DNA from: a virus
Direction: 5' to 3' (one strand)
Virus record (IMG/VR): IMGVR_UViG_3300026183_000032
Coordinates: 1 to 28,687 of that record
DNA: 28,687 nucleotides
In this document: positions 396 to 24,047 of the stretch, piece after piece
Layout: each line of letters begins with the position of its first letter
How positions within the stretch are numbered: position 1 is the stretch's first letter
The notes under the pieces: generated by a model
What the model saw: only the letters and a program-made list of their open reading frames with translations
Told to the model about the DNA's origin: nothing
Databases searched by the model: none
Position numbers and translations under genes: made by a program

Positions 396-568
396 TATCC
401 ACCAAATTGTTCTTCATATTTAGCTTCTAAAGAGTCAACTTTTGCTTGCAAATTATCAATAATTGATTGCTCACTATCATTAATTTCAGCAATATATAAA
501 TTTTCTCTAGCAGCTTTAATATTTGTTAATAATATATTTTGCTTTTCTTCTTGAGTTAAATCAGGCAT
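395..568 (-). CDS. Small 57-residue coiled-coil protein downstream of the fibre
   Basis: This short frame begins MPDLTQEEKQNILLTNIKAA and runs to a TAA that overlaps the next ATG. It starts at the ATG overlapping the fibre stop (TAATG), with GGAGGG just upstream inside the fibre gene. The sequence is helical and charged with heptad-like Leu/Ile spacing (DNLQAKVDSLEAKYEEQ), so a short coiled coil is likely. Position suggests a fibre-assembly chaperone or accessory protein, but I do not recognise a family. It closes the only sizeable gap in this part of the window. Confidence 0.78.
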   Translation of the reverse strand: MPDLTQEEKQNILLTNIKAARENLYIAEINDSEQSIIDNLQAKVDSLEAKYEEQFGG

Positions 569-2259
569 TATCCCTCCAATGCTTCGATTCTAGCAGTTAA
601 TTCTGAAATCTGTGTGCTTAGTTCTTGTACTGCTTTTACTAATGGTGCTAATAACTCTGTTCCTTTAAGTCCATATTCATCGGAAGTTTCGTTGTAATCT
701 ACTAAAGCAATATCCAAATCTGTTTCAGGTGGGGTGTTCAAAACTTCCTGTGCAATAAATCCCCAAGACTTTTGACCTACAGGTACACCTGTTGTATCTA
801 TTTCTCCCACTACACAAGCAATTTCATTTTCTACACAATCAGGACATTCAGTTTCTAAAGTTTCTCCATCTGATTTTGTTTGGAATACATAATTAGAAGT
901 TAAGCAACCACTTCTTGTTCTTCTGTTCCATTCATACTGAACAGGTCTCAATGTGTTTAAATAATCTATACCATAAGGAATATCTTCTATAGTGTTTTTT
1001 AATCTCTCATCAGAAGTGTAATTAGGTGCATTAATAAGATATATACTTTTATATCTACCATTACCAAAGTTGTTTCCTATATCTTCGTCTGCGTTGCTAT
1101 CAGGATATATGTCTCTTGTGTAGAGAGTAGTTCCTGCATAGTTTGTTGTGTAAAGATTTATAGTTTGACCTGATTGACCTATGTAATCAACAAATCTACC
1201 ACCTGAGCTAGCAGATAAAGTAACACTTCCTCTTAATCCACCAGGATAAAGAGCTTGTACTGCTGTAGAAGAACTTACATGAGAACCATGACTAACTGCT
1301 GCATAATCACTATCGTGGTCGTGATTACCTGCAGCAACTCTAGTTCCTGTAGTTCCAAAGTTTAATGTAATGTTTCTACCACTAATAGTTAATGCATCTG
1401 TAGAACCACTAACAGTATCTACATATTCTCCATCGTGGTTGTGACTACTAGCAGCAAAAGTTGTATGGTCGCTTTCATCATGATGAATGTTTAATATACC
1501 ACTTGAACCAGAAAGACCTAAAACACCAGAAACACTTAAGCTAGCAACACCACTTGTAGCAGAACCAACTGCAAGTCTACCTGAGCTAGTTACACCAAGT
1601 AATTTACTTAAAGTAGTACTTGTTTTTGAGGCAGCGTTAATACCATTAAATGTCAATATAGGGTCATTATTTGAAGTTCCATTGGATAAATTTAAAGTAT
1701 CTCCTTCTAAGCTAATTATTCCACCAGTTGATGTGATAATCCTTGTATCTCCATTTAAAATACCATTTTCTATAAAAAAGTCGCTTGGGCTAGTAGATTC
1801 AACTGCTAATCTCATTGCAGTTCCAAGAGATGTTTCGTATCTTATTTCACCTTCTCTTTGACTATTGTCTGTTATTTCGATTCTTGGTGTACTAGCAGAA
1901 GTTCTAAATGTTCCACCATTAAAATCTAAAGTTCCAGCAAGCTCAACACCTATCAAATCACCTCTTACTGTTACATTATTAAATTCTGCACTTCCATCTG
2001 CTGAAATAATCCAACCAGCAGTATTTTGACTGTAATTACCTGATATTGAACCATTGTTATTTAGTGTTATATAGTTAGTTCCATCTGAAGCTCTTAAGTA
2101 AGTATTTGCTAGCTCCCAACCACCTACAGTTCCTGAAGTTGCTGTTAATACACCAGTCTTAGTTACAGAAAAAACAGGTGTATAACTTATCTCACTTAAT
2201 TCTTGCGAGCCTGTTTGACCAAACCAAAAATTACCATCTGTATCTATATGTATTGCCAT
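568..2259 (-). CDS. Tail fibre/spike with C-terminal S74 intramolecular chaperone
   Basis: A 563-residue receptor-binding candidate. The N-terminus (1-102) repeats the beta module of the hub C-terminus, suggesting end-to-end trimer joining. The middle is Ser/Gly/Thr-rich. His-rich turns occur at 259-265, 273-275 (HNH), 313-315 (HDH) and 324-327, comparable to metal-binding HxH sites of T4-type fibre tips. Residues 416 to the end are a peptidase S74 chaperone: SDERLK places Ser416 and Lys421 as the self-cleavage dyad, followed by YGIDYLNTLRPVQYEW and GFIAQEV, and a C-terminal heptad helix. A Cys-containing insertion (Cys452, 472, 475, 482) interrupts the chaperone. Self-cleavage would leave a mature fibre of about 415 residues. 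AGGA lies 6 bases before the ATG; the stop overlaps the next gene as TAATG. Confidence 0.92.
   Translation of the reverse strand: MAIHIDTDGNFWFGQTGSQELSEISYTPVFSVTKTGVLTATSGTVGGWELANTYLRASDGTNYITLNNNGSISGNYSQNTAGWIISADGSAEFNNVTVRGDLIGVELAGTLDFNGGTFRTSASTPRIEITDNSQREGEIRYETSLGTAMRLAVESTSPSDFFIENGILNGDTRIITSTGGIISLEGDTLNLSNGTSNNDPILTFNGINAASKTSTTLSKLLGVTSSGRLAVGSATSGVASLSVSGVLGLSGSSGILNIHHDESDHTTFAASSHNHDGEYVDTVSGSTDALTISGRNITLNFGTTGTRVAAGNHDHDSDYAAVSHGSHVSSSTAVQALYPGGLRGSVTLSASSGGRFVDYIGQSGQTINLYTTNYAGTTLYTRDIYPDSNADEDIGNNFGNGRYKSIYLINAPNYTSDERLKNTIEDIPYGIDYLNTLRPVQYEWNRRTRSGCLTSNYVFQTKSDGETLETECPDCVENEIACVVGEIDTTGVPVGQKSWGFIAQEVLNTPPETDLDIALVDYNETSDEYGLKGTELLAPLVKAVQELSTQISELTARIEALEG
1954..2151 (-). 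repeat. Beta repeat module, fibre copy
   Basis: Fibre residues 37-102 (LTATSGTVGGW... SADGSAEFNNVTVRGDL) mirror the hub copy. The preceding strand pair also matches: hub VFKVDSNGNMWLG against fibre AIHIDTDGNFWFG. The array is thus continued across the gene boundary. Confidence 0.75.
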
Positions 2260-2262
2260 AAC

Positions 2263-5200
2263 TTATCCTATATGAACCGAACCTGCGTTTATTGTCATTG
2301 TACCAGTAATTGTTGCACCACTAGCGAATAATACACCTGAATTTGAAACAGTAAATGGTGCATCTCCATAATTAGCATGACCAAGCCACATGTTACCATT
2401 ACTATCTACTTTAAATACTGCATTACCAGAACCAATACTAATTGTACCTGCTGATAAATCACCTCTAAATGTTCCATCATTAAATTCTACTGAACCATCT
2501 GCATTTAGTTTAAAACCTGCACTTCCTTGTGTATAGTTAGCCTTAATGAAAGCATTAGCACCATCAATCTCCATAGAGTTAGAATTACCATCATCTGCTG
2601 ATAGCTTATCGCTTGCAATTGTCCAGCCACCAATATTGCCAGATGTTGCTGTTATATTACCTCTAAATACTGCATCATTAAATTCTGCATAACCATTTGG
2701 ATAACCAGTATCTTGCTTTCTAATTGTCCAACCTGATGTTCCTAATGAATAGTTATCTGATTCAATAAGGTTTCCTATTTTTGCATTACTAATAGCAGCA
2801 TTAGCTATCTTTGCAGTATCGACTGATAAGTTTCTTATTTTTGCAGTAGTAATAGCAGCATCATCTATATTTTCAGTTAAAACTAAATTAGCACTTTTCT
2901 GTTGTTCAGGTGAAGCAGCAGACTCATTACCAGCTAAATCTACAGCAGTAAATCTAAAAAACATAGTATCTGCACTATCTAAACTATCTCCTTTAAGAGT
3001 AGTGACAGCAGGTATCCCTAATCTAAGCATTGATGCATCTGCTGGTACTTTACCTATTAAACTACTTTCTCCAACAGTAAAACCTGAAGTTGTAGAACCA
3101 TATACATTTAAATGTGACAAGTCTGATGGAAGAGTGAAATCGACCACTGAAGCAAGTGGATTACCTTGTGCATCAGTAGCAGCACCTAATCTATGTATAA
3201 CTTGAATAGCACCTTGTAAGGAAGCAAGTGTTGTTGCTTCATCAGGTGTAGGGGGTGTTCCTGTATCAACTGCTGTAGTTATTGTTTCATATACGAAACC
3301 ACTAGAAGCACCAGTAGTTATAGCTTGAACACCTACTTTATAAGAAGTAGCTTGCAATAAATCTTGTATAGTAAATGTAGTATTTCCCCAGTTAATAAAG
3401 TAATGTTCTGTACCACCTAGTGCTGGGTTTAGTGGTTGAACTGTAATTTCGTATTGCAAACCATTATTTATAATTGTTCCATCATCATTTCTAGGAACTA
3501 ACCACTCTACAAATATAATAGACCTTTGTGTTCCTAAAGCATCTGTTTCAAATCCTGTAGTAGTTCTTATACCTTCATTATCAGTATCATCAGGGTCTAA
3601 AACTTTACCTGGCTTATATTGTTTTTCCCCAGTAAATGCACCAGATATTTGTGAAGAAAATCTTAAATCATCTCCTATTTGCTTACCTATCTCACCTACT
3701 TCTAAAGTTGTATTACCAGTCTCAAACTCTACATAGTCACATAAGTCATAATATCTAACACTGTATGGATTTGTAGAAACAACTTTCCTTAAATAAACAC
3801 CGAATGTATCTTCAATAGGATAAGTTATTCCTACTATTCTTATTTTTTCAGGATTGATAAATTGACCTTGCCATATAGTTTCATAAGGTTCACTTCTACC
3901 ATCTGCAATGGCTTTTGTATTGTCATCTACAAAACCAATTTCAGGGTCATAAACATAAATATTATCGCCTACTTCAAAATCACCTTTGACATCGTAATAT
4001 TCTAAAGATAAAGAAAGAGATTTTTTAATTCTTGTAAATTCATCTAAAAATGCTTCAGCTCTTTTAGGTGCCATGTTACTTGTAACTTCACTTTCAGTAA
4101 CATAAGCAACTCTTTCTAAAGGATTTCCAAATAAATCATAATAAGGTACATTGGTTAAAAATCTTTCATAACTATCCATATGCTCACCATCAGAACCAAC
4201 ATTTTCTAAATATTCAACACCAGCAACCCAATCTTCAGCTTCAAACTGTGTTGTCAATGCATCAGGATTTAAACCTATAATTGCAGGGTCTTCTCCACCA
4301 CTATCTCTGACAATTATTGCTGTTGGTTCATTAGTACCATGTCCAACAAATATAGATTCTGGTAAACCTGAATCTAAAGTACCATTTGTATTAATTCTGT
4401 ACTCTGCTTCTAATTGAGACATTACTTTTTTAATAGCAGAATAGGCACTCTCTACATTGTGGTTACCAGTGTAATTATTAACAGTAGTTTGAATTGTTGG
4501 TGTTGTATCAGGTGTAAAGCTAGCATCATATAGAGCTTCACCTTTCGTAATCCTTAGCCCATCAATATAACCTTTAAAGTAATCTGCTTGTTGACTTCTA
4601 CCTATTGATAATTTTAAAGATGCTTTTTCATCAGTACCACCTGTTTTAGCATCGCGAGTGTTTCTTTTAATTACTTTGTCAGAAAACCACTCATCAACTT
4701 TTACACCATTTTCCCAAGTTGTAAATTTATTACCTTTTCTAGTAATTGCTCTATGCACCCATTGATTGGTAGATGGAACATCTCCAAGTTTTTTATTATT
4801 AGCTATATTCCATATAGTGCTATCAACACCTGTAATACCATCTATGTTACTTTCTGCATAGTGACCAGTAATATAAACACCCAATCTTCCTGTGCCATCA
4901 TTTAAACCAAATATATATGGTGGGATTGAGCCATCGCCTTGGGCTGCAACTGCTGGTCCATTTGTTGTTGCAGGTCTAACATTTATAAAAGTTTGGTCTC
5001 CTTTATACCACCTATTGTTAATCTGCCATATTAAAGAAAAATATTTTTGATATAAGGGCTCATCTTCCCAGTAGTTTGCAGGTCCTTCAGATGTGTCGTA
5101 GATTGATGCATCTCCTGTGTAGTAGAGTGGTATTTCATCTTGTCTGCCTTGACTAAGTAGTTCTAATATTGTGTTACTTACAGACCCTGTTGGTAATGTT

Positions 5201-6276
5201 GAATATACTATATCTACCCATTGTGGTGCATTTGGTCTAGCCATAAAAAAGTCTTCTATGATTGCTGGTCCTTGATACCACTGAGAGTTTGTTCTTGGGT
5301 CAAGTGGTGTAGCACTAGGATTGATACTGCTGTTGGAACCTAGCAAATCATCAATATCTTCTCTTCTAGCTTTTATCATTGCATCATCCCAAATCATTGC
5401 TGATTTCCAAGTAACTTTTACACCATTAACAACAACAGGTTCATAGACTGTTTTTAAATTATTTGGGTCAACACCTGATGGGTAATCTGCTGGTGATGGT
5501 TTAGCACCTAAAAACATTAAAGCATATCCTGAATCGTTATATGCAGTTAAATCACTAGATTGAGTTACAGATGTACCATCTACTTGTTTATATAAATGTA
5601 CAAAAAAACTATTAGAAAATGCCTCTTTACCAATCTGAAAACATACTAAAACCATCATGTCAAAGTGTTTTTGAGCTAATGTATTGTCATAAGGGAAAGC
5701 ATCTTTATATGAATTAAATACAGATTTTACTTTTGCAATATAACCTACTAAATCTTCTGAAAGTAATGTACTAGCAAGTGACTCAGAAAATCTCATATTA
5801 TTGTTAGCATTATCATTTCCTGTGTAAGCTACTCTAATACCAGTTGTCTGTACTGCACTATTTACATCTAAATAATTACCACCAGAATTAGATGTTGCGT
5901 AGGTACTACCAGTTTGTATTGGAAAACTGTAATCTACTGTATTGATTGTGAATGTGTCATCAGTGTATAATCCATAAAAATCATAGTATAAAGAATCAGA
6001 ACCTCTATGAACTGCACCTTCGTTAAGATATGTATGACCATATCCAACAACTAAATTTCCCCTTACACCATCATGAAATTCTGGGTCGAATGGCACTCTA
6101 CCACCAACGCCCTCTGCAAATGGTGTTGAACCACTAGGAACTGGGTCGTTGTCAATATAAACACCTCTAACTGGATATCCTGTGTCATAAACAAAAGGTA
6201 CGAATCCAATTCTGCTTTTTACAGCAGCTAATCCATCAGTACTTAAGTTTGCATTTGCTAAATCAAATTGTGGCAT
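2263..6276 (-). CDS. Tail hub, C-terminal part: GH24-like module, LamG half, hub core, FN3 and fibre repeats
   Basis: Domains in order: residues 12-312 resemble GH24 phage lysozyme (STDGLAAVKSRIGF, GYGHT at 78-82, HFDMMVLVCFQIGKEAF at 204-220, then IKARREDIDDL) but Ile23 replaces the catalytic Glu; an unassigned segment to 425; the second LamG half 426-590 (WVHRAITRKGN, LSIGR, GYIDGLRITKGEALY); hub core about 600-870 (EAEYRINTNGTLDSGL, VPYYDLFGNPLERV, YYDVKGDFEVGDNIYVYDP), as in actinophage hubs; fibronectin III-like domains about 900-1130; a TAKI-repeat coiled coil; three beta repeats of the NY...GW...EFN..FRG type. Role: closes the tail and starts the fibre, probably contacting the cell surface. 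The start (ATG at 6276) has only a weak GGA 3 bases upstream and lies 6 bases after the preceding TGA. Confidence 0.88.
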   Translation of the reverse strand: MPQFDLANANLSTDGLAAVKSRIGFVPFVYDTGYPVRGVYIDNDPVPSGSTPFAEGVGGRVPFDPEFHDGVRGNLVVGYGHTYLNEGAVHRGSDSLYYDFYGLYTDDTFTINTVDYSFPIQTGSTYATSNSGGNYLDVNSAVQTTGIRVAYTGNDNANNNMRFSESLASTLLSEDLVGYIAKVKSVFNSYKDAFPYDNTLAQKHFDMMVLVCFQIGKEAFSNSFFVHLYKQVDGTSVTQSSDLTAYNDSGYALMFLGAKPSPADYPSGVDPNNLKTVYEPVVVNGVKVTWKSAMIWDDAMIKARREDIDDLLGSNSSINPSATPLDPRTNSQWYQGPAIIEDFFMARPNAPQWVDIVYSTLPTGSVSNTILELLSQGRQDEIPLYYTGDASIYDTSEGPANYWEDEPLYQKYFSLIWQINNRWYKGDQTFINVRPATTNGPAVAAQGDGSIPPYIFGLNDGTGRLGVYITGHYAESNIDGITGVDSTIWNIANNKKLGDVPSTNQWVHRAITRKGNKFTTWENGVKVDEWFSDKVIKRNTRDAKTGGTDEKASLKLSIGRSQQADYFKGYIDGLRITKGEALYDASFTPDTTPTIQTTVNNYTGNHNVESAYSAIKKVMSQLEAEYRINTNGTLDSGLPESIFVGHGTNEPTAIIVRDSGGEDPAIIGLNPDALTTQFEAEDWVAGVEYLENVGSDGEHMDSYERFLTNVPYYDLFGNPLERVAYVTESEVTSNMAPKRAEAFLDEFTRIKKSLSLSLEYYDVKGDFEVGDNIYVYDPEIGFVDDNTKAIADGRSEPYETIWQGQFINPEKIRIVGITYPIEDTFGVYLRKVVSTNPYSVRYYDLCDYVEFETGNTTLEVGEIGKQIGDDLRFSSQISGAFTGEKQYKPGKVLDPDDTDNEGIRTTTGFETDALGTQRSIIFVEWLVPRNDDGTIINNGLQYEITVQPLNPALGGTEHYFINWGNTTFTIQDLLQATSYKVGVQAITTGASSGFVYETITTAVDTGTPPTPDEATTLASLQGAIQVIHRLGAATDAQGNPLASVVDFTLPSDLSHLNVYGSTTSGFTVGESSLIGKVPADASMLRLGIPAVTTLKGDSLDSADTMFFRFTAVDLAGNESAASPEQQKSANLVLTENIDDAAITTAKIRNLSVDTAKIANAAISNAKIGNLIESDNYSLGTSGWTIRKQDTGYPNGYAEFNDAVFRGNITATSGNIGGWTIASDKLSADDGNSNSMEIDGANAFIKANYTQGSAGFKLNADGSVEFNDGTFRGDLSAGTISIGSGNAVFKVDSNGNMWLGHANYGDAPFTVSNSGVLFASGATITGTMTINAGSVHIG
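2455..2658 (-). repeat. Beta repeat module, hub copy
   Basis: Hub residues 1207-1274 (NITATSGNIGGW... NADGSVEFNDGTFRGDL) match fibre residues 37-102 at protein level. A shorter relative (NYSLGTSGW... AEFNDAVFRG) lies just upstream, about residues 1175-1205. Likely a trimeric beta-prism-like fibre unit. Confidence 0.75.
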
Positions 6277-6285
6277 TTTCCATCA
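5002..6285 (-). other. In-frame module inserted into the LamG domain of the hub
   Basis: The LamG domain breaks after Ala231 of the upstream piece and resumes at Gly426 of the downstream piece. The intervening 1284 bases (428 codons, exact multiple of 3) hold the TGA, a new ATG, the GH24-like module and about 110 more residues. No convincing target-site duplication or terminal repeat is seen at either end. Ends are placed by protein pattern and may be off by some codons. Confidence 0.65.
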
Positions 6286-6978
6286 CGCAGTCCTATATTC
6301 CCACCATTCAACAGTAAAGTCACCAGATTCAAATTGAAAGTGATAAGAATAATCTACTTCTACATATGACCTATCACCATCTAGGTATAAACTTGTACTA
6401 CCATTTTTTGCTTGTGTGTTACTTATCTTGGCATTTCCATAAAAATATGAATCGTGGTCTCTTTTAGTTGCATCTGTAGTTGATGTATCTCCATTGTTAC
6501 CTTCGAAGTTGTACAATAAATCTGTACTTTCTTTGCTTGGATTTGTAATTGTTCCAGCTCTAATTGCTCTTTTACCACCATCTTTACCATCTCTTAAAAG
6601 ACCATAAGGTGTTCCGTCTTCAAAATTATCTAAAACATATTGCAAAGATTTATCTTTGTATTTACGCATATCTGAAATACCACTACCTTGGTCAGATATA
6701 GGAAGACCTCTAGTATCACTGTCTCCTAAATATATTCCAAGACCTGCACCATCAATTTCTACTGCATCATCTCCTAAAGCTAAACCAGTAATTACACCAA
6801 CATAATCAGCACTAGAAAGCATCGCAGCATCATTAAGTTCATTTTCAGAAACTCTTTGTGGAACTATGATTATGTTATCCCATGCATCTATTGTATTAAG
6901 AATTGAGTTAGGTGTCTTGTTGTAATCTAGTTTTAAACTAAAACTACCTTGAGCCATTAATTTTTCTGTAACTGACAT
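6283..6978 (-). CDS. N-terminal part of the tail hub (Tal-like) ending in half a LamG domain
   Basis: Residues 1-145 (LMAQGSFSLKLDYNKTPNSI, IITGLALGDD-like strands, YLGDSDTRGLPIS, LLRDGKDGGKRAIRAGTI) match the start of actinophage minor tail/hub proteins. Residues 153-231 are the first half of a LamG/concanavalin-like domain (LLYNFEGNNGD, GSTSLYLDGDRSYVEV, GDFTVEWWEYRTA) and stop abruptly at TGA (6285-6283). The complementary LamG half lies 426 residues into the next gene, in the same frame. The frame continues past the TGA as TGG AAA ATG, the ATG being the next gene's start. It may act as a split protein whose halves reassemble, or be joined by readthrough to 1571 residues. No clear Shine-Dalgarno precedes its ATG; coupling through TAATG is likely. 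Confidence 0.85.
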   Translation of the reverse strand: MSVTEKLMAQGSFSLKLDYNKTPNSILNTIDAWDNIIIVPQRVSENELNDAAMLSSADYVGVITGLALGDDAVEIDGAGLGIYLGDSDTRGLPISDQGSGISDMRKYKDKSLQYVLDNFEDGTPYGLLRDGKDGGKRAIRAGTITNPSKESTDLLYNFEGNNGDTSTTDATKRDHDSYFYGNAKISNTQAKNGSTSLYLDGDRSYVEVDYSYHFQFESGDFTVEWWEYRTA

Positions 6979-8327
6979 TATGCTTTTATTATTTTCTGAT
7001 ATTCGTATACATTATCTAAATATTGGTCTCTTATATCTGTTGCACTGTCGGCATCATTAACGCTTCCATCTTCTTGTGCCAATTCATATCCAATAAATGC
7101 TTTCATTTGAGCACCACTTTTATACATCATTTCTCTTGTAGCATCAAAATTTAAAGAACTAGATGCACTTTCAGGACTACCTAGTATCCATTTGTTACCA
7201 TCTTCAGGAGAAGACATATTGTCGATTATGTATCCAGTTCCTGTAGCTGCGTTTGTTCCAGAAGCTGTAGCTAATGAAAGATTAAATCTACTTGCTGTAA
7301 ATTGATTTGCAACAATTGAAACATGATGTGAACCCCTTCTTAAGGTAAAATCTACCACCAATCTCCCATCTTTTGAATCAGCATTTAAATATGTTGTACA
7401 TCTAACTGTAATGCATTCAGGGTGATTTTTTAGTATTTGCATTGTTCTCCACCCTTGCCAGTCTGCACCTAATTGAGCAGAGCCACTAGGCAAACCTCTA
7501 CTAAAAGCCCATGTTTTACCAGATTGATAATCAGCGACATCGTAAATATATGTATCAAAAAGTGCCTGTGTAGTAGAGCTACCTAATACAACTTTTATTA
7601 ATCCATTTTCTAAAACTAATTCAGTTGGTTTATTTTTAGAAAATAGTCCACATCTAATTTCTGTAGAAGGTGTATCAAATGTTACAGCACCAGTAACATC
7701 ATCTGAAAATCCAGATAAGTAAGTTCCTGTAGTAATTCTACAAGCACCTTTATAATAATCACTTGGCTCTACATGATATGTAGCGTTAAAATCTCTTAAG
7801 TTGCTATCGGTTTTTATTCTTAATGTAGTATTAGCACCTGTAGTAGAGCTTGTTAAATCTTTAGCCAACCTCGTACCATCAGTAGGTTGACCTGCGTGAT
7901 AATAGTTGTAATGATTTGCTGGTGGAACATGAAATTGATTAGTAGTGGATGTAACACTGTGGTCGTTGTCTAGCAACGCACCTGTAAACCTTGATTCAAA
8001 TTGAACTTCACCACTTCTTCCTAAATATTCAAATTCTACATCATAATTAAAACCACCAAGTGAATATCTTGATGTATTTACAGAACTTCCTAAAACTCTA
8101 ACATATCCATCATAAGTACTATCGCCATCATATCTAAATGGAACAACTAAACCATAAGATGCCATAGAGATTAATTCATCTCTAATATATTTTATATGTT
8201 CTATAGTGACAGCAGTACCACCAATTTTTCCACTAAAAGATAATTCTCTGCCACCATCAGAAGATTGAAAGTTCAAAGATGATGGTGAAGTTATACTTAA
8301 TTGTCCTATATGTACTTGATGAGCCAT
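6978..8327 (-). CDS. Distal tail (Dit-like) / minor tail protein, actinophage type
   Basis: A 449-residue protein between tape measure and hub, where Dit is found. The N-terminal 120 residues (HIGQLSITSPSSLNF, LSFSGKIGGTAVTIEHIKYIRDEL, GLVVPFRY) fit a Dit-like ring domain. The C-terminal portion follows a pattern I know from mycobacteriophage-type minor tail proteins: an HVPPANHYNYYHAG segment, LVLENGLIKVVLG, WQGWRTMQILKNHPECITVRC and LVVDFTLRRGSHHVSIV. It probably forms the ring connecting tube and hub; carbohydrate binding by the C-terminal beta domain is possible. Start and stop both overlap neighbours as TAATG, so translation is coupled with tape measure and hub. The family assignment is by memory of pattern, not search. 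Confidence 0.75.
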   Translation of the reverse strand: MAHQVHIGQLSITSPSSLNFQSSDGGRELSFSGKIGGTAVTIEHIKYIRDELISMASYGLVVPFRYDGDSTYDGYVRVLGSSVNTSRYSLGGFNYDVEFEYLGRSGEVQFESRFTGALLDNDHSVTSTTNQFHVPPANHYNYYHAGQPTDGTRLAKDLTSSTTGANTTLRIKTDSNLRDFNATYHVEPSDYYKGACRITTGTYLSGFSDDVTGAVTFDTPSTEIRCGLFSKNKPTELVLENGLIKVVLGSSTTQALFDTYIYDVADYQSGKTWAFSRGLPSGSAQLGADWQGWRTMQILKNHPECITVRCTTYLNADSKDGRLVVDFTLRRGSHHVSIVANQFTASRFNLSLATASGTNAATGTGYIIDNMSSPEDGNKWILGSPESASSSLNFDATREMMYKSGAQMKAFIGYELAQEDGSVNDADSATDIRDQYLDNVYEYQKIIKA

Positions 8328-16912: not shown

Positions 16913-17598
16913 TTACCTAACTCTCTTCTTTTTATTTGTTGCATCAGAAACAAAATCTTCGACTGACACTTGTTCTCTAGGTCTGTTGCCACGACCTCTA
17001 ATTCTGTCTAATTCTTTTTTCCACCAACCTCTTTGTGGTTTTGTGCTATCTTCATGCTCATATGTCTCATCATTCATCAAAGCATTGTAATGTGGTGCAT
17101 AGAAATTAGAAGAATCCACTGGTAGATTAGTTAGTAATATCATAAACTTTCTCCAAGTAACCTCTAATGGTTTATCAATGTTGTAATGTCGTTGAAAGTC
17201 TGATTCTATTGAAGCCCAACGAAACCATATTTCACTGAGCTTAAACGCTATTTTGGGGAGCCATCCTCTTCGGAAGTTTCGGTTTCAACCTCTTCATCAC
17301 CTTGTTGTAAGTTATATTTTTCTAACAACCAAGTAAGTAATTCTTCAAGTTGATTCCAAGTTGCTCCATTTTCAAGCATCTCATCTAAGACTTCTTGTCC
17401 TACAATCGATGCTAACCATTCAGGTATAACTTGTGTTGGAATAGAACCAGTCTCATCCATCCAACGCATTTGTGCAAGAACTGTTCTTGCTGGTAAAGCA
17501 TGGGGAAAAGTATACTCTTCTCCACCTAGTTTTACCTTAATTGCTTTCTCTTCAGCTTCTTCTTGAGCTAAATCGAAATCTTTAAAATTGTCAGCCAC
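16913..17598 (-). CDS. Tail assembly chaperone, -1 frameshift G-T fusion
   Basis: Reading 17598 to 17251 in the G frame, slipping back one base at C CCA AAA and continuing to TAA at 16915-16913 gives 228 residues: G plus a 112-residue T extension. The extension begins IAFKLSEIWFRWASIESDF and continues with RHYNIDKPLEVTWRKFMILLTNLP, the classical T-domain pattern (DFQRxYxI...W..F..LL..LP). The Met at 17143 that would start a 76-residue separate gene lies inside this T domain and removes its first 36 residues, so a separate gene is unlikely. T binds tail tube subunits while G binds the tape measure, as in phage lambda; this division is by analogy. Confidence 0.92.
17212..17257 (-). promoter_or_regulatory. 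Programmed -1 ribosomal frameshift signal (slippery site and hairpin)
   Basis: The slippery heptamer C CCA AAA is at 17257-17251, immediately followed by the G stop codon TAG. After an 8-base spacer (17250-17243) the RNA can form a 13-bp stem (17242-17230 with 17224-17212) with a 5-base loop. I paired it by hand: ten Watson-Crick and three G-U pairs, no bulge. The X XXY YYZ site, spacer and hairpin are canonical, and the -1 frame downstream encodes the T domain without a stop. Confidence 0.92.
17248..17598 (-). CDS. Tail assembly chaperone, unshifted G form
   Basis: The 116-residue G product is an acidic helical protein (VKLGGEEYTFPHALPARTVLAQMRWMDETG; then LEELLTWLLEKYNLQ) that resembles the tail assembly chaperones of long-tailed phages. 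Such proteins coat the tape measure before the tube assembles. Start: GTG at 17598, supported by a perfect AGGAGGT at 17609-17603. It stops at TAG (17250-17248) directly after the slippery sequence C CCA AAA, so a minority of ribosomes produce the longer G-T protein. The gene sits between the major tail protein and the tape measure, its usual place. Confidence 0.93.
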   Translation of the reverse strand: MADNFKDFDLAQEEAEEKAIKVKLGGEEYTFPHALPARTVLAQMRWMDETGSIPTQVIPEWLASIVGQEVLDEMLENGATWNQLEELLTWLLEKYNLQQGDEEVETETSEEDGSPK

Positions 17599-19152: not shown

Positions 19153-22100
19153 TTAGTATCTGTAACCCATATTCATATAAAAATCCTTAACTGCTCTTTT
19201 TTTCTTTACTAGGTCACCAGAATTTTGTAATCGATTTAACAATTCTAATACCTCTCTTCTAGGAGCTACCTCTGAAAAAATTCTTTGGTCTGAACCAACT
19301 TGTGAAGAAGTTTCCATTATAACTTTAAAAGTAGTATTAAACAGTTCATCACCATAACCAAATAGCAATAAAGCTAAAGTCTGTGTATTTTCGCCTTGGT
19401 TTATATCTGCAGCAATGTTTTCTAGTGCTTTTCCTAATTGACCTGAAGTAGTAAAGTCTTTTTGTTTTTGACCCTCATTACTATCTACAACTACATAATC
19501 TCCATAAATTTCTTTTACAGACCACCCTTTACTTCTTTTACCACTGTCAGATATTCTTAATTCTCTTAAAACAACCATAAAGTTTTCTACAAAATTTTTG
19601 TCGGATGAATCGCCCCTTAAGAACTCTTCAAATACTGGGTCACCTTGAACACCAGTATCTCTAAAATCTCCAGGTATGGATTTACCATCATAACCTTCAA
19701 TATATAGTTCACCTACATTATCTGGGTCCATATCCAATCTGACCCTTTCTATATAATCAGCATCATAGTTACTTGGTGCATCAAATTTTCTATCAGCATC
19801 ATCACGAATATATTGCTCAAGTGTAATTCTTAAATCTTCTTCATCATCTCTGCCTGGAAATACTGCTATAACCTTTCTACCACTTTCTGATGTTGTAAAC
19901 TCAATTCCATATTCGCTATATGTATTTTTCATAATACCTCTTTGTATTGCTAAGAACTCTTTAAATTCTTTTGAACTTAATATTTGATTTAAATTATCTC
20001 CCTTAGCAATTCTTGAATCTATATATTCTTTTTGTGCACTTTCAAATGTGCTTTGAATGTCACTTTCAATTTCTCTAAAAGATGGTGCTTTTTCAAATTT
20101 ACCAAGTCCAGAATTGTAAAAACTCATTGCTTCATCTCCAGTGCTCTTAGATACAGCTAATAAATATTGTCCTATTTCATCTACAGTCCTATCTAATGTT
20201 TCTTCAAAATGTCTATCTGCATTAGCATCCCATTCAGCTTCATACCTCATAATTTCATTATCAATGTGGTAGCCTTGTTCTAGTTGCAGTCTTTCAAGCA
20301 CATCTTCTGCCTTTTTTTCGGCATCAATAGGGTTGTAATTTCCTTTTGCATTTACTTCTGCTATTGCAATATCTCTTAATTCTTGTGTACCAGGACTTCT
20401 TAATAACAAATCTTTACGAAAATTATCAATAGCCATGTTTCTATCTTTTGTATATATCTCATCTATATAATCAATAATTGATTGTTCCGAAGTTAATCCT
20501 GCATCTACCATACCCCTAGGTATTCTTGTTGTATATATCCATTCATAGTCTTTAGGGTCAAACATGCTTGCACCTGAGCCTTCTGTTCCTGGTATACCTT
20601 TGTATATACTTGTTCTGAATGGACCATCTTGAAAGTTAATTTCTTTTCTTAATATATTCATTAATCTATCCTGTATTCTTGCAGCATTAATATAACTTCT
20701 TTCATCATTAACACCTGCTCTTCTTCTACCATCTCTTCTAGTTGACTCGTTAAATCTTTCTTGTGGTGTCTTTCCTAAATTAGGAGAACTTAAATCAGAT
20801 ACAGGTTCTAATTTATGTTTTCTGACTATCTCTGTACCATCTTCTAATACATCAACCATAAATGCACTTGCACCAATACCTTGTAACTTATTAAATGCTT
20901 CAGTGTTGTTAATACTTGCTCTTGCTTGTTCTACTGCATCCATTTGTTTTCTCAATGGGTCATCAAATATGCTAGCTCTAGGATTTATTGACTTAACCCT
21001 ACCTGACCTCAACCTATCTTGATAGATAGCGTTTTCAGCGTTCATTATTGTTTTTAATCTATAATCAGCAAGTAAGTTAAAACCTCTGTCTTTTTCACGA
21101 GGAGATATACCTCTTAATGTTTGATTAGTTAATGATTGTGTAAAGCTTCCTTTTTGCATACCGCCAAATCTAAATGTCGCATTTATACCTAAACTTTGGG
21201 CAGTTTTATAAGCAGCATTATTTAAAAATAAACTTCTTGGATATGCGTATGGTGTTTGTACAGTTGTTGCAGGACCACCATATTCAATTTGTTGAGCATC
21301 TACTATTGAGTCTGCAAATTGTGAACGAGGTGTGCTACCACCAAAGCTAACACCAAAAGATAAAAATGCATCATCTTTAGGCATATCCTCTGGTGGAATA
21401 ATGTGTATAGCTTTTTGTATTTGTTGTCTTGATGGTATGTAGTTAGCTTTTGCTGGATTGTTTTGTAAAATTACATTTGAATATGAACTATTGAATCCTT
21501 TAGTGTCATTTCTACCAAAACCACCACCAACCATTACTGACATTTCTTGAAAATCACCTAAACCTTTTTCAGCACCTAACACCATCTCTACTAATCTTTC
21601 AGCATCTCTTCTTGTTCCACCTGCATCTCCACCTGGTCTATGAGCACCATGTATACCCATTGATGTCATGTTTAAAAATTGTACAGCTTGTCTTACACCA
21701 TCATTTTTTATATCTCCACCTCTTCTTCTTGCCTGTGCATAACTTCTTGCCATATTTAATTTTCCTTTAGGCATCAAAGGTGCTGTATCTTTACTTCTCG
21801 CTCTAGCTATATGATTTAATTTTCTAGCTGTGTCATATAAAATCTCAAATTTAGCCGAATAATTTTCTAAATCATCACCATATTTAGTTAAGCTACCACT
21901 TGTTTTACCTATCATCCTTTCTATCATGTCATCTACTTCACTACCTGAAAACTGTCTAAAGAAAGTAGCATCAGTTGAATTTTCACCTATGTTAAAACCA
22001 AATGATGGATATGTTTTGGAGTCTCTATATCTTGGCTCACCAGTTTCAGGGTCCATACCTAAATATTGCCTACCCATAATTTCATAGTCTCCATCTTTTC

Positions 22101-23019
22101 TTCTTTTTTCATAATTTGTTGCTAATTTTTCTTTAGCAGGTTTTACTGAATCTTCAATTTCATCTATCAAACCCTCTAAATCATCTGACATTTCACCTGT
22201 TCTAATATCCTTAACATAATGTCTAGGGTTAGGGGTCTTTCTTGCTATAGCTTGTCTATAGTCATCTAATAAATTATTAGGATTTGAACCTGTTTTCATA
22301 AATTTTAAATAGTGATTTGCTTCTGAAACATTCATTCCTTCAGACAAAAGATTTTTAAACATATCTGTATTTTTAAGAAAAAATTGATTGCTTGCAAAAT
22401 CAGTATCAGAAGTCATGTTTCTTTTGCCATAACCACCCATAAGTTTAGCTGCTTGATGGTAAGGGTCAGGTGCACTAGATATTGCATTAGCTGCTGTCAT
22501 TAAAGACCATTGCCTACCAATACCTCTACCATCTCTTATTTGTCTTTTAATTTCATCTTCAAAACTCTTAACATTATGTATAGTCAATTCAGAATTAACA
22601 AAAAACTTAGATGACATTTTAGATAGTATATTTTTTGATTGTCTACCTGCTTGCACACGCAAAGCTCTTGAAACAGGACCATAACCACTTGGTACAACTT
22701 TGTTTTGTATTCCTGCTAAAAACTTACCACCTTTTGTCCACGCATAACGAGCAGCTAATGATTTTGTTAAATTGTCTGTAACGAAAAAAGCAGATATGTC
22801 ATTTAATCCCTGTAGAAATCCATAAGATAAATTGACTAAATTATTTGTTACAGCAGTTTGAGCACCAAAAGATTTTGCCCATAAAAAACTTCTGTTTACT
22901 TTATATAATTTTGCTTCTTGTCTTTGTGAAAGAAAAAATTGTTTACGACTTTCAGATACAAACTGTCTCTGTTCAACAATTACCTTTTCACCAAGATTTG
23001 TTGATACTCTTTTAGCCAT
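19153..23019 (-). CDS. Giant 1288-residue protein of unknown function in the neck position
   Basis: I do not recognise this protein. It occupies the slot between head closure and tail terminator, where HK97 gp10-like neck proteins of about 120-200 residues are usual. The first 170 residues are basic and helical (YAWTKGGKFLAGIQNKV, PSGYGPVSRALRV) and could be the neck portion, but this is a guess. The middle contains Arg- and Gly-rich stretches (ARSYAQARRRGGDI, GIHGAHRPGGDAGGTRRD, MVGGGFGRNDTKG), and residues about 700-1000 are charged and helical with many Asp and Glu. The C-terminus is mixed (IYGDYVVVDSNEGQKQKDF). No transmembrane segment, signal peptide or obvious catalytic motif is visible. 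The start overlaps the previous stop as TAATG. It may be a virion protein, possibly an ejected one, that has absorbed the neck protein. Confidence 0.9.
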   Translation of the reverse strand: MAKRVSTNLGEKVIVEQRQFVSESRKQFFLSQRQEAKLYKVNRSFLWAKSFGAQTAVTNNLVNLSYGFLQGLNDISAFFVTDNLTKSLAARYAWTKGGKFLAGIQNKVVPSGYGPVSRALRVQAGRQSKNILSKMSSKFFVNSELTIHNVKSFEDEIKRQIRDGRGIGRQWSLMTAANAISSAPDPYHQAAKLMGGYGKRNMTSDTDFASNQFFLKNTDMFKNLLSEGMNVSEANHYLKFMKTGSNPNNLLDDYRQAIARKTPNPRHYVKDIRTGEMSDDLEGLIDEIEDSVKPAKEKLATNYEKRRKDGDYEIMGRQYLGMDPETGEPRYRDSKTYPSFGFNIGENSTDATFFRQFSGSEVDDMIERMIGKTSGSLTKYGDDLENYSAKFEILYDTARKLNHIARARSKDTAPLMPKGKLNMARSYAQARRRGGDIKNDGVRQAVQFLNMTSMGIHGAHRPGGDAGGTRRDAERLVEMVLGAEKGLGDFQEMSVMVGGGFGRNDTKGFNSSYSNVILQNNPAKANYIPSRQQIQKAIHIIPPEDMPKDDAFLSFGVSFGGSTPRSQFADSIVDAQQIEYGGPATTVQTPYAYPRSLFLNNAAYKTAQSLGINATFRFGGMQKGSFTQSLTNQTLRGISPREKDRGFNLLADYRLKTIMNAENAIYQDRLRSGRVKSINPRASIFDDPLRKQMDAVEQARASINNTEAFNKLQGIGASAFMVDVLEDGTEIVRKHKLEPVSDLSSPNLGKTPQERFNESTRRDGRRRAGVNDERSYINAARIQDRLMNILRKEINFQDGPFRTSIYKGIPGTEGSGASMFDPKDYEWIYTTRIPRGMVDAGLTSEQSIIDYIDEIYTKDRNMAIDNFRKDLLLRSPGTQELRDIAIAEVNAKGNYNPIDAEKKAEDVLERLQLEQGYHIDNEIMRYEAEWDANADRHFEETLDRTVDEIGQYLLAVSKSTGDEAMSFYNSGLGKFEKAPSFREIESDIQSTFESAQKEYIDSRIAKGDNLNQILSSKEFKEFLAIQRGIMKNTYSEYGIEFTTSESGRKVIAVFPGRDDEEDLRITLEQYIRDDADRKFDAPSNYDADYIERVRLDMDPDNVGELYIEGYDGKSIPGDFRDTGVQGDPVFEEFLRGDSSDKNFVENFMVVLRELRISDSGKRSKGWSVKEIYGDYVVVDSNEGQKQKDFTTSGQLGKALENIAADINQGENTQTLALLLFGYGDELFNTTFKVIMETSSQVGSDQRIFSEVAPRREVLELLNRLQNSGDLVKKKRAVKDFYMNMGYRY

Positions 23020-23408: not shown

Positions 23409-24047
23409 TTAAATGCCTAGATTTTCGTTAATTCTTCTAGTCTTTCTTCTTTCTTTCGATTTACAAGTTTTACAAAACAATGAAAGACCATCTCTAAATT
23501 TTGAATTGCCATCAAATGAGCTAGGAGAAAGACTTTGTTTACACATCATGCAAGTTTTTTTGTCTATCTTTACTTTATTGTCTTTTATCTGTGAATGACA
23601 TACTTTGCAATATCTGTTGTATCCATCTTTATATTTTGCTGATTTATTATATTCACTAATAGATTTATTAACAGAACATTTATAACAAACTTTTTCTGTT
23701 GGATTGTAACTAGCATTTAAAAAATTTTCACGAGCTTGTTCTACTCGTTTACTAAGTTCTACATCTTTGACACACCAAGTTCTAAACTTGTCATAACCAA
23801 CTGATAAACCCTTATATGTTTTTCTAGTAGCTATAGTTCCATAACCAGATTGTATTCTTTGTATAACTTGTTCTGCAACTTCGTAATCTATGTCATTACC
23901 TATAGATAAACCAGCTTGAACTTTTAATTGCCTGACCCTTTCTACTGAGACACCCCATTCTTTAGACCATTCCTTAAGTAATTTATTAGGGTTTTCTAAA
24001 AATAGAGTTTTTGCCTCCTCCACACTAGGTGCTTTTTTATTAGGCAT
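23409..24047 (-). CDS. HTH-like protein with two Cys4 zinc knuckles, embedded among connector genes
   Basis: The 212-residue protein has a helix-turn-helix-like N-terminus (about 21-48, LLKEWSKEWGVSVERVRQLK) and a middle segment that may hold a second helical unit (FRTWCVKDVELSK). The C-terminal half carries two tandem Cys4 units with identical spacing: Cys121, 124, 147, 150 and Cys166, 169, 192, 195, each C-x2-C-x22-C-x2-C. Each unit includes a Lys/Arg-Asp-Gly turn (YKDGYNRYC, FRDGLSLFC) as in zinc-binding parts of phage endonuclease VII-like and homing proteins, but no nuclease domain follows. It ends in a very basic tail. This suggests a nucleic-acid-binding protein rather than a structural part. 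No Shine-Dalgarno is visible before the ATG. A regulator or a remnant of a homing nuclease are both possible. Confidence 0.85.
   Translation of the reverse strand: MPNKKAPSVEEAKTLFLENPNKLLKEWSKEWGVSVERVRQLKVQAGLSIGNDIDYEVAEQVIQRIQSGYGTIATRKTYKGLSVGYDKFRTWCVKDVELSKRVEQARENFLNASYNPTEKVCYKCSVNKSISEYNKSAKYKDGYNRYCKVCHSQIKDNKVKIDKKTCMMCKQSLSPSSFDGNSKFRDGLSLFCKTCKSKERRKTRRINENLGI

What the first reader, a model, noticed from the sequence alone, without database searches (positions are those of the whole stretch)
5002..6978. LamG domain split between two tail proteins by an inserted lysozyme-like module
The 231-residue hub piece ends in the first half of a LamG-like domain (…GDFTVEWWEY), and the second half (WVHRAITRKGN, GYIDGLRITKGEALY) starts 426 residues into the next protein, in the same frame. 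The LamG domain itself sits between two parts of an actinophage-type hub. So three layers are nested: hub, LamG, lysozyme-like module. The halves could reassemble in the tail tip as a natural split jelly-roll holding two chains together. I know of no described case, though T4 gp5 has a lysozyme inside a tail hub.
Basis: partly seen in the sequence, partly recalled or inferred. Interest (0 to 1): 0.8.

Follow-up and report, generated by a model that had tools for sequence, protein, structure and literature searches.

The report
Phage tail lectin split by lysozyme
In a family of uncultured phages, a lysozyme-like gene has landed inside a sugar-binding (LamG) domain of a tail-hub protein, so that one protein fold is now apparently made from two separate chains; related phages still carry the uninterrupted protein, or a hub with no lectin at all, so each step of the build-up can be seen.

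Summary
The 231-aa ORF ends in the first six strands of a LamG jelly-roll. The next ORF starts with a ~425-residue GH24-lysozyme-like module and then carries the remaining strands. Twenty-seven contigs (about 20 genotypes) share the split at the same residue (...EWWEYR), although the frame relation of the two ORFs varies, so read-through or programmed frameshifting does not explain it. Twenty-five relatives encode the same hub with an uninterrupted LamG in one ORF, and one distant relative (L203) has the hub with no LamG. A profile from nine unrelated phage LamGs maps the halves to complementary positions in 16 of 16 lineages. Both halves are under purifying selection. AlphaFold on the window's read-through sequence gives the same strands as the intact relative. 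Best explanation: a lysozyme gene inserted once into a LamG loop and split the hub gene, and the chains re-form LamG and hub non-covalently. Reassembly is inferred, not shown. New: the GH24 residues E, D, T are kept in 14 split contigs but all lost in the window's clade, so its module is probably a pseudo-lysozyme. Phage genes-in-pieces are known for enzymes; I found none described for a tail protein.

The parts
6577..6978 (-). hub part 1 (P0002 residues 1-134)
   Evidence: 33-35% identity of residues 1-91 to the LamG-less hub L203 and about 39-44% to intact relatives
6286..6561 (-). LamG N-half (P0002 residues 140-231), six main strands, ends ...DFTVEWWEYRTA
   Evidence: matches positions 2-78 of an HMM from nine unrelated phage LamGs; AF2 strands 153-229
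6274..6285 (-). stop/start junction TGA TGG AAA ATG
   Evidence: sequence; distance -1 to +8 nt and all three phases in relatives
4993..6276 (-). inserted lysozyme-like module (P0001 residues 1-428), GH24 fold
   Evidence: Pfam Phage_lysozyme E 1.8e-5; Foldseek to T4-type endolysins and SpmX muramidase domain
6049..6210 (-). positions of the GH24 catalytic residues, here I23, T32 and V76 instead of E, D, T
   Evidence: comparison over 26 contigs, column positions
4477..4992 (-). LamG C-half (P0001 residues 429-600), eight main strands
   Evidence: HMM positions 125-210; Pfam PF13385 69-142; AF2 strands 677-812, pLDDT about 70-91 over most of it
3637..4476 (-). hub part 2 (P0001 residues 601-880)
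   Evidence: 43% identity to intact relative L016, 31% to LamG-less hub L203; weak PF06605 Prophage_tail hits among relatives
3310..3528 (-). fibronectin type III domain (P0001 917-989)
   Evidence: PF00041 E 1.1e-5
2635..2820 (-). phage tail tip fibre region (P0001 1153-1214)
   Evidence: PF09327 E 2.6e-11
6978..8327 (-). 449-aa protein between tape measure and hub, distal-tail (Dit) position
   Evidence: gene order only; no Pfam or PHROG hit

Best explanation
A hub gene of the siphophage tail tip had first gained a LamG (ConA-like) domain between its two hub parts. Later, in one lineage, a lysozyme (GH24) gene inserted into the loop between LamG strands 6 and 7. A start codon at its front remained or arose, so the old gene was cut in two: a ~230-aa chain (hub part 1 + LamG strands 1-6) and a long chain (lysozyme module + the remaining LamG strands + hub part 2 + FN3 and fibre). 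The two ORFs overlap or nearly touch and are most likely made by coupled translation. The two chains then fold together, completing both the hub and one LamG jelly-roll non-covalently, with the lysozyme module hanging from the LamG surface at the free N-terminus of the long chain. In the outer lineages the module keeps its catalytic residues and probably cuts peptidoglycan at entry. In the window's clade all three are gone, so it probably serves as a structural or peptidoglycan-binding piece. Shown: the sequence split, its conservation, intact and LamG-less relatives, selection on both halves, loss of the triad. Inferred: reassembly, coupling, position in the virion, function.
For: Same breakpoint in 27 contigs. 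25 uninterrupted relatives and a hub with no LamG. Complementary halves against an independent LamG profile in 16/16 lineages. dN/dS 0.02-0.24 for both LamG halves in ten informative pairs, in the range of the other segments (one near-identical pair is uninformative). 40 LamG residues identical at >=90% in both split and intact groups, and 43 of 66 hydrophobic positions kept. An AF2 read-through model made without any intact sequence gives strands that match the intact relative's. On an L203-rooted tree split is one clade (98/98) and intact one clade (91/92). In every complete split contig the insert and LamG C-half share one ORF, while the N-half has its own stop. No known intron by Rfam. Precedents of split phage enzymes that work (PMC2988022).
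Against: No structure or biochemistry of the two chains. The AF2 test used a single read-through chain with a 3-residue junction; confidence in the N-half is moderate (pLDDT 61-85), the hub is poorly predicted, pTM is low (0.36), and no contact map was available. The rooting rests on one long outgroup branch (L203). All sequences are metagenomic.
Confidence: 0.8

Rival explanations
1. The two ORFs are sometimes translated as one chain by stop-codon read-through or frameshifting, so the hub is a single protein with a lysozyme inserted in its LamG.
For: In the window and three relatives the ORFs are in the same frame.
Against: The phase of the second ORF is 0, 1 or 2 among 26 contigs. Three of the four same-phase contigs have two stop codons (TGA TAA). 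The second ORF starts MPQF[DN] next to the stop in every case.
Confidence: 0.04
2. The LamG no longer forms: one half is vestigial and the chains are joined only through the hub parts.
For: Hub parts alone could hold the chains together; the LamG halves evolve somewhat faster than the hub in some pairs.
Against: Both halves keep LamG core residues and low dN/dS although the split proteins have diverged to about 46-50% identity; no complete contig has lost or shortened either half.
Confidence: 0.1
3. The insert is an intron, intein or homing element that is spliced out.
For: Its position inside an otherwise intact domain resembles a mobile element.
Against: No Rfam intron. The insert is coding in all contigs, under purifying selection and fused in frame with the C-half. 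It is GH24-like. The N-half ends with its own stop.
Confidence: 0.02
4. The LamG forms between protomers: the N-half of one hub copy pairs with the C-half of a neighbour in the trimer (domain swap).
For: Hubs of this type are trimers (T4 gp27, PMC3004832), and the break lies in a long loop.
Against: No direct evidence; hub part 1 and LamG half 1 are on one short chain, which favours pairing within one protomer.
Confidence: 0.1

Closest known systems
Phage genes-in-pieces: Aeh1 nrdA (mobE), T4 topoisomerase gene 60/39 (mobA), Aeromonas phage 25 gene 43A/43B (PMC2988022)
   Same: An inserted gene cuts a coding region into two polypeptides that must reassemble; intact homologs exist in relatives.
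   Different: There the insert is in the main a free-standing homing endonuclease and the target an enzyme. Here the insert is a lysozyme-like module fused in frame to the downstream half, and the target is a jelly-roll of a tail hub.
'Evolved' Tal and Dit proteins of siphophages (PMC7291167)
   Same: Carbohydrate-binding modules inserted in the hub (gp27-like) domain; position after tape measure and Dit.
   Different: Those are single polypeptides; no second insertion inside the module and no chain break is described there.
T4 gp27-gp5 hub with tail lysozyme (PMC3004832)
   Same: GH24 lysozyme domain carried by the tail hub; more than one chain in the mature device.
   Different: In T4 the chains arise by proteolysis of gp5 and no LamG is involved. 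Here the break is genetic and lies inside a domain.
Phage LamG/Laminin_G_3 domains, e.g. cyanophage baseplate wedge initiators, S-SKS1
   Same: Same LamG type (DFTxEWW ... QWxHxAxxR ... GYxDxxRITKG).
   Different: Uninterrupted, and in other proteins.

Membership tests
LamG / ConA-like (PF13385) | sequence profile over the whole domain | tested here: met
   Met only when the halves are joined: 2-142 of 151, E 3e-9; independent HMM 2-210 of 211
LamG / ConA-like (PF13385) | jelly-roll (ConA-like) fold | tested here: met
   Intact relative: LamG pLDDT mostly 80-96, AbnA domain 4 TMt 0.68. The split read-through gives matching strands, but Foldseek aligned it less fully (AbnA TMt 0.37)
LamG / ConA-like (PF13385) | ligand (glycan) binding | not testable with these tools
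   -
GH24 phage lysozyme (PF00959) | fold and profile | tested here: met
   PF00959 E 1.8e-5, residues 141-237 only; Foldseek 7m5i, 6h9d, 8app
GH24 phage lysozyme (PF00959) | catalytic Glu-Asp(+9)-Thr | tested here: not met
   Window clade 12/12 has I/V, T/S, V; 14/14 other split contigs have E, D, T; L202 lacks E and T. The E-to-D spacing equals T4 gp5 Glu184/Asp193 (PMC7677548)
GH24 phage lysozyme (PF00959) | muralytic activity | not testable with these tools
   -
genes-in-pieces (insertional fission) | uninterrupted homolog in relatives | tested here: met
   25 contigs
genes-in-pieces (insertional fission) | both pieces kept under selection | tested here: met
genes-in-pieces (insertional fission) | insert is a homing endonuclease (as in the described phage cases) | tested here: not met
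   Insert is GH24-like
genes-in-pieces (insertional fission) | pieces reassemble and function | not testable with these tools
   only indirect support
gp27-like tail hub (Tal) | gene order after tape measure and Dit | tested here: inconclusive
   Order fits, but the Dit-position protein has no Pfam or PHROG hit
gp27-like tail hub (Tal) | gp27-like fold | tested here: inconclusive
   Hub pLDDT low; PF06605 Prophage_tail in 4 of 36 alignment members, best E 0.0016

The most novel reading that the evidence does not exclude
A stable class of natural split-lectin tail hubs: one LamG jelly-roll made from two co-translated chains in every virion, with a lysozyme tethered at the new free N-terminus, which in one clade has become a non-catalytic peptidoglycan-binding part, so that the tail tip evolved from hub to hub-lectin to hub-lectin-lysozyme to hub-lectin-pseudolysozyme.
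Probability: 0.6. Interest if true: 0.72.

Novelty: new variant of a known kind. Interest (0 to 1): 0.62.

Why it matters
It is a natural split protein of a structural (non-enzyme) kind with every evolutionary stage still extant: hub alone, hub with LamG, LamG broken by a lysozyme gene, and lysozyme decayed. That makes it a clean test of how a domain survives being cut by an inserted gene, a candidate source of a split-lectin pair for protein engineering, and an example of how phage tails stack modules inside modules.

Tried and rejected
Read-through or frameshift: rejected because the phase varies and double stops occur. Intron: no Rfam match. Assembly artefact or pseudogene: rejected by 27 contigs and low dN/dS. 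Free-standing copy of the insert: not found in three searches, so its donor is unknown. Known phages: no tblastn match for the insert or hub part 2 in 50,697 phage records; only LamG matches. Genome contigs: only LamG relatives, no host. A first alignment for the intact model misplaced C-fragments (A4) and was replaced by A5. Direct PDB sequence matches of single inserts gave chance hits. Many Foldseek hits of the intact LamG are jelly-rolls of clostridial neurotoxin binding domains: shared ConA-like fold only, no suggestion of toxin function.

Full report
What is there. The window is a whole 28.7-kb viral contig with an HK97-type head and a long-tailed (siphophage-like) tail module on the - strand: head maturation protease, major head protein, connectors, tail terminator, major tail protein, tail assembly chaperone, a 2857-aa ORF in the tape-measure position, a 449-aa protein in the Dit position, then the two proteins of the finding, then a fibre with an S74 chaperone domain. 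The 231-aa ORF ends ...DFTVEWWEYRTA-stop. After the stop (TGA TGG AAA ATG) the 1337-aa ORF starts in the same frame.

The two halves are one LamG. An HMM from nine LamG domains of unrelated phage proteins matches the N-half at positions 2-78 and the C-half at 125-210 of 211; the excised join gives a single hit, 2-210, 118 bits. In all 16 split lineages tested the halves occupy complementary parts of the profile. Pfam agrees: the window's join covers 2-142 of 151 (E 3e-9), the C-half alone 69-142, the N-half alone nothing.

Relatives. Searches of IMG/VR gave three states. Split: the window and 26 other contigs, several near-identical, so about 20 genotypes. In all of them the first ORF ends at EWWEYR plus a few residues and the second starts MPQF[DN]. 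Intact: 25 contigs with one ORF that reads ...DFTVEWWEYRTSTSGNPTAIARNN... through the breakpoint. No LamG: L203, whose residues 1-89 match hub part 1 and 130-372 match hub part 2, with a 40-residue connector in place of LamG. On a hub tree with L203 as outgroup, split contigs form one clade (98/98) and intact ones another (91/92) (unrooted, 100/100). L203 is a long branch, so the root is less certain than the separation of the two groups. The simplest history is LamG gained once, then lysozyme gained once inside it.

Expression. The second ORF lies -1 to +8 nt from the first stop, in phase 0, 1 or 2; three of the four same-phase contigs have TGA TAA between. That is what translational coupling would look like, and it argues against a programmed fusion product. 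The lysozyme module and LamG C-half always share one ORF where the contig is long enough to tell.

Does the LamG still form? dN/dS (Nei-Gojobori) is 0.02-0.24 in both LamG halves, against about 0.03-0.13 in the hub parts and 0.07-0.23 in the insert; one near-identical pair is uninformative. Forty LamG residues are identical at >=90% in both split and intact groups, including the EWW, QW and GY/D motifs. AlphaFold on the window's read-through sequence (TGA read as W, a stand-in for two chains; the alignment held only split relatives) gave LamG strands 153-229 (pLDDT 61-85) and 677-812 (about 70-91 over most of it). The intact relative gave high confidence over LamG (mostly 80-96) and the same main strands in the same order, with the break in the loop between strands 219-227 and 247-253. 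No contact map or coordinates were available, the hub was poorly predicted, and a true two-chain prediction could not be run. Reassembly is therefore inferred.

The insert. It has the GH24 fold: Pfam Phage_lysozyme 1.8e-5, and Foldseek matches to T4-type endolysins and the SpmX muramidase domain. GH24 enzymes use a Glu and an Asp nine residues later (T4 gp5 Glu184/Asp193, PMC7677548); the third residue, Thr, is from general knowledge of T4 lysozyme. The 14 split contigs outside the window's clade keep E-x8-D and T. All 12 contigs of the window's clade have I/V, T/S and V instead. L202, within a triad-keeping clade, has lost E and T on its own. So the module probably entered as an active enzyme and decayed at least twice while the fold was kept under selection.

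Mechanism proposed. Insertional fission of a tail-hub gene by a lysozyme gene, followed by non-covalent completion of hub and LamG by two chains. A second interface, the hub itself, would help the LamG halves meet and may explain why the break was tolerated. The lysozyme module sits at a free N-terminus on the LamG surface, where it could reach the cell wall.

Known cases. Phage enzymes split by inserted genes work as two chains (Aeh1 NrdA, phage 25 DNA polymerase, probably T4 topoisomerase; PMC2988022). Siphophage hubs with inserted carbohydrate-binding modules are known as evolved Tals (PMC7291167). T4 carries a lysozyme in its hub (PMC3004832). I found no report of a structural jelly-roll split by a lysozyme, but the library lacks most subscription papers.

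Noticed in passing
19153-23019 (-): 1288-aa ORF between head-tail connector genes and the tail terminator with no PHROG match; an unusually large protein for that position.
   Followed up: no
23409-24047 (-): 212-aa protein with two zinc-ribbon-like CxxC repeats matching endonuclease VII/HNH PHROGs, lodged between connector genes; possible mobile endonuclease.
   Followed up: no
568-2259 (-) versus L016:6001-10146: The S74 chaperone domain is a separate gene in the window, while in intact relative L016 an S74-like end (DERLKENV...) is fused to the hub protein: apparently a second fission or fusion in the same ancestral protein.
   Followed up: partly
L087/L088 around 6001-6441: Another phage tail protein has a LamG domain sitting inside what looks like a tail-hub sequence: possibly an independent hub-LamG insertion.
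   Followed up: no
L047, L053, L065: Split relatives with larger lysozyme-like inserts (about 530-570 aa instead of about 425), with extra segments inside the module.
   Followed up: partly
16913-17598 (-): Two adjacent small ORFs (116 and 76 aa) before the tape measure, the first a tail assembly chaperone; the usual site of a programmed frameshift.
   Followed up: no
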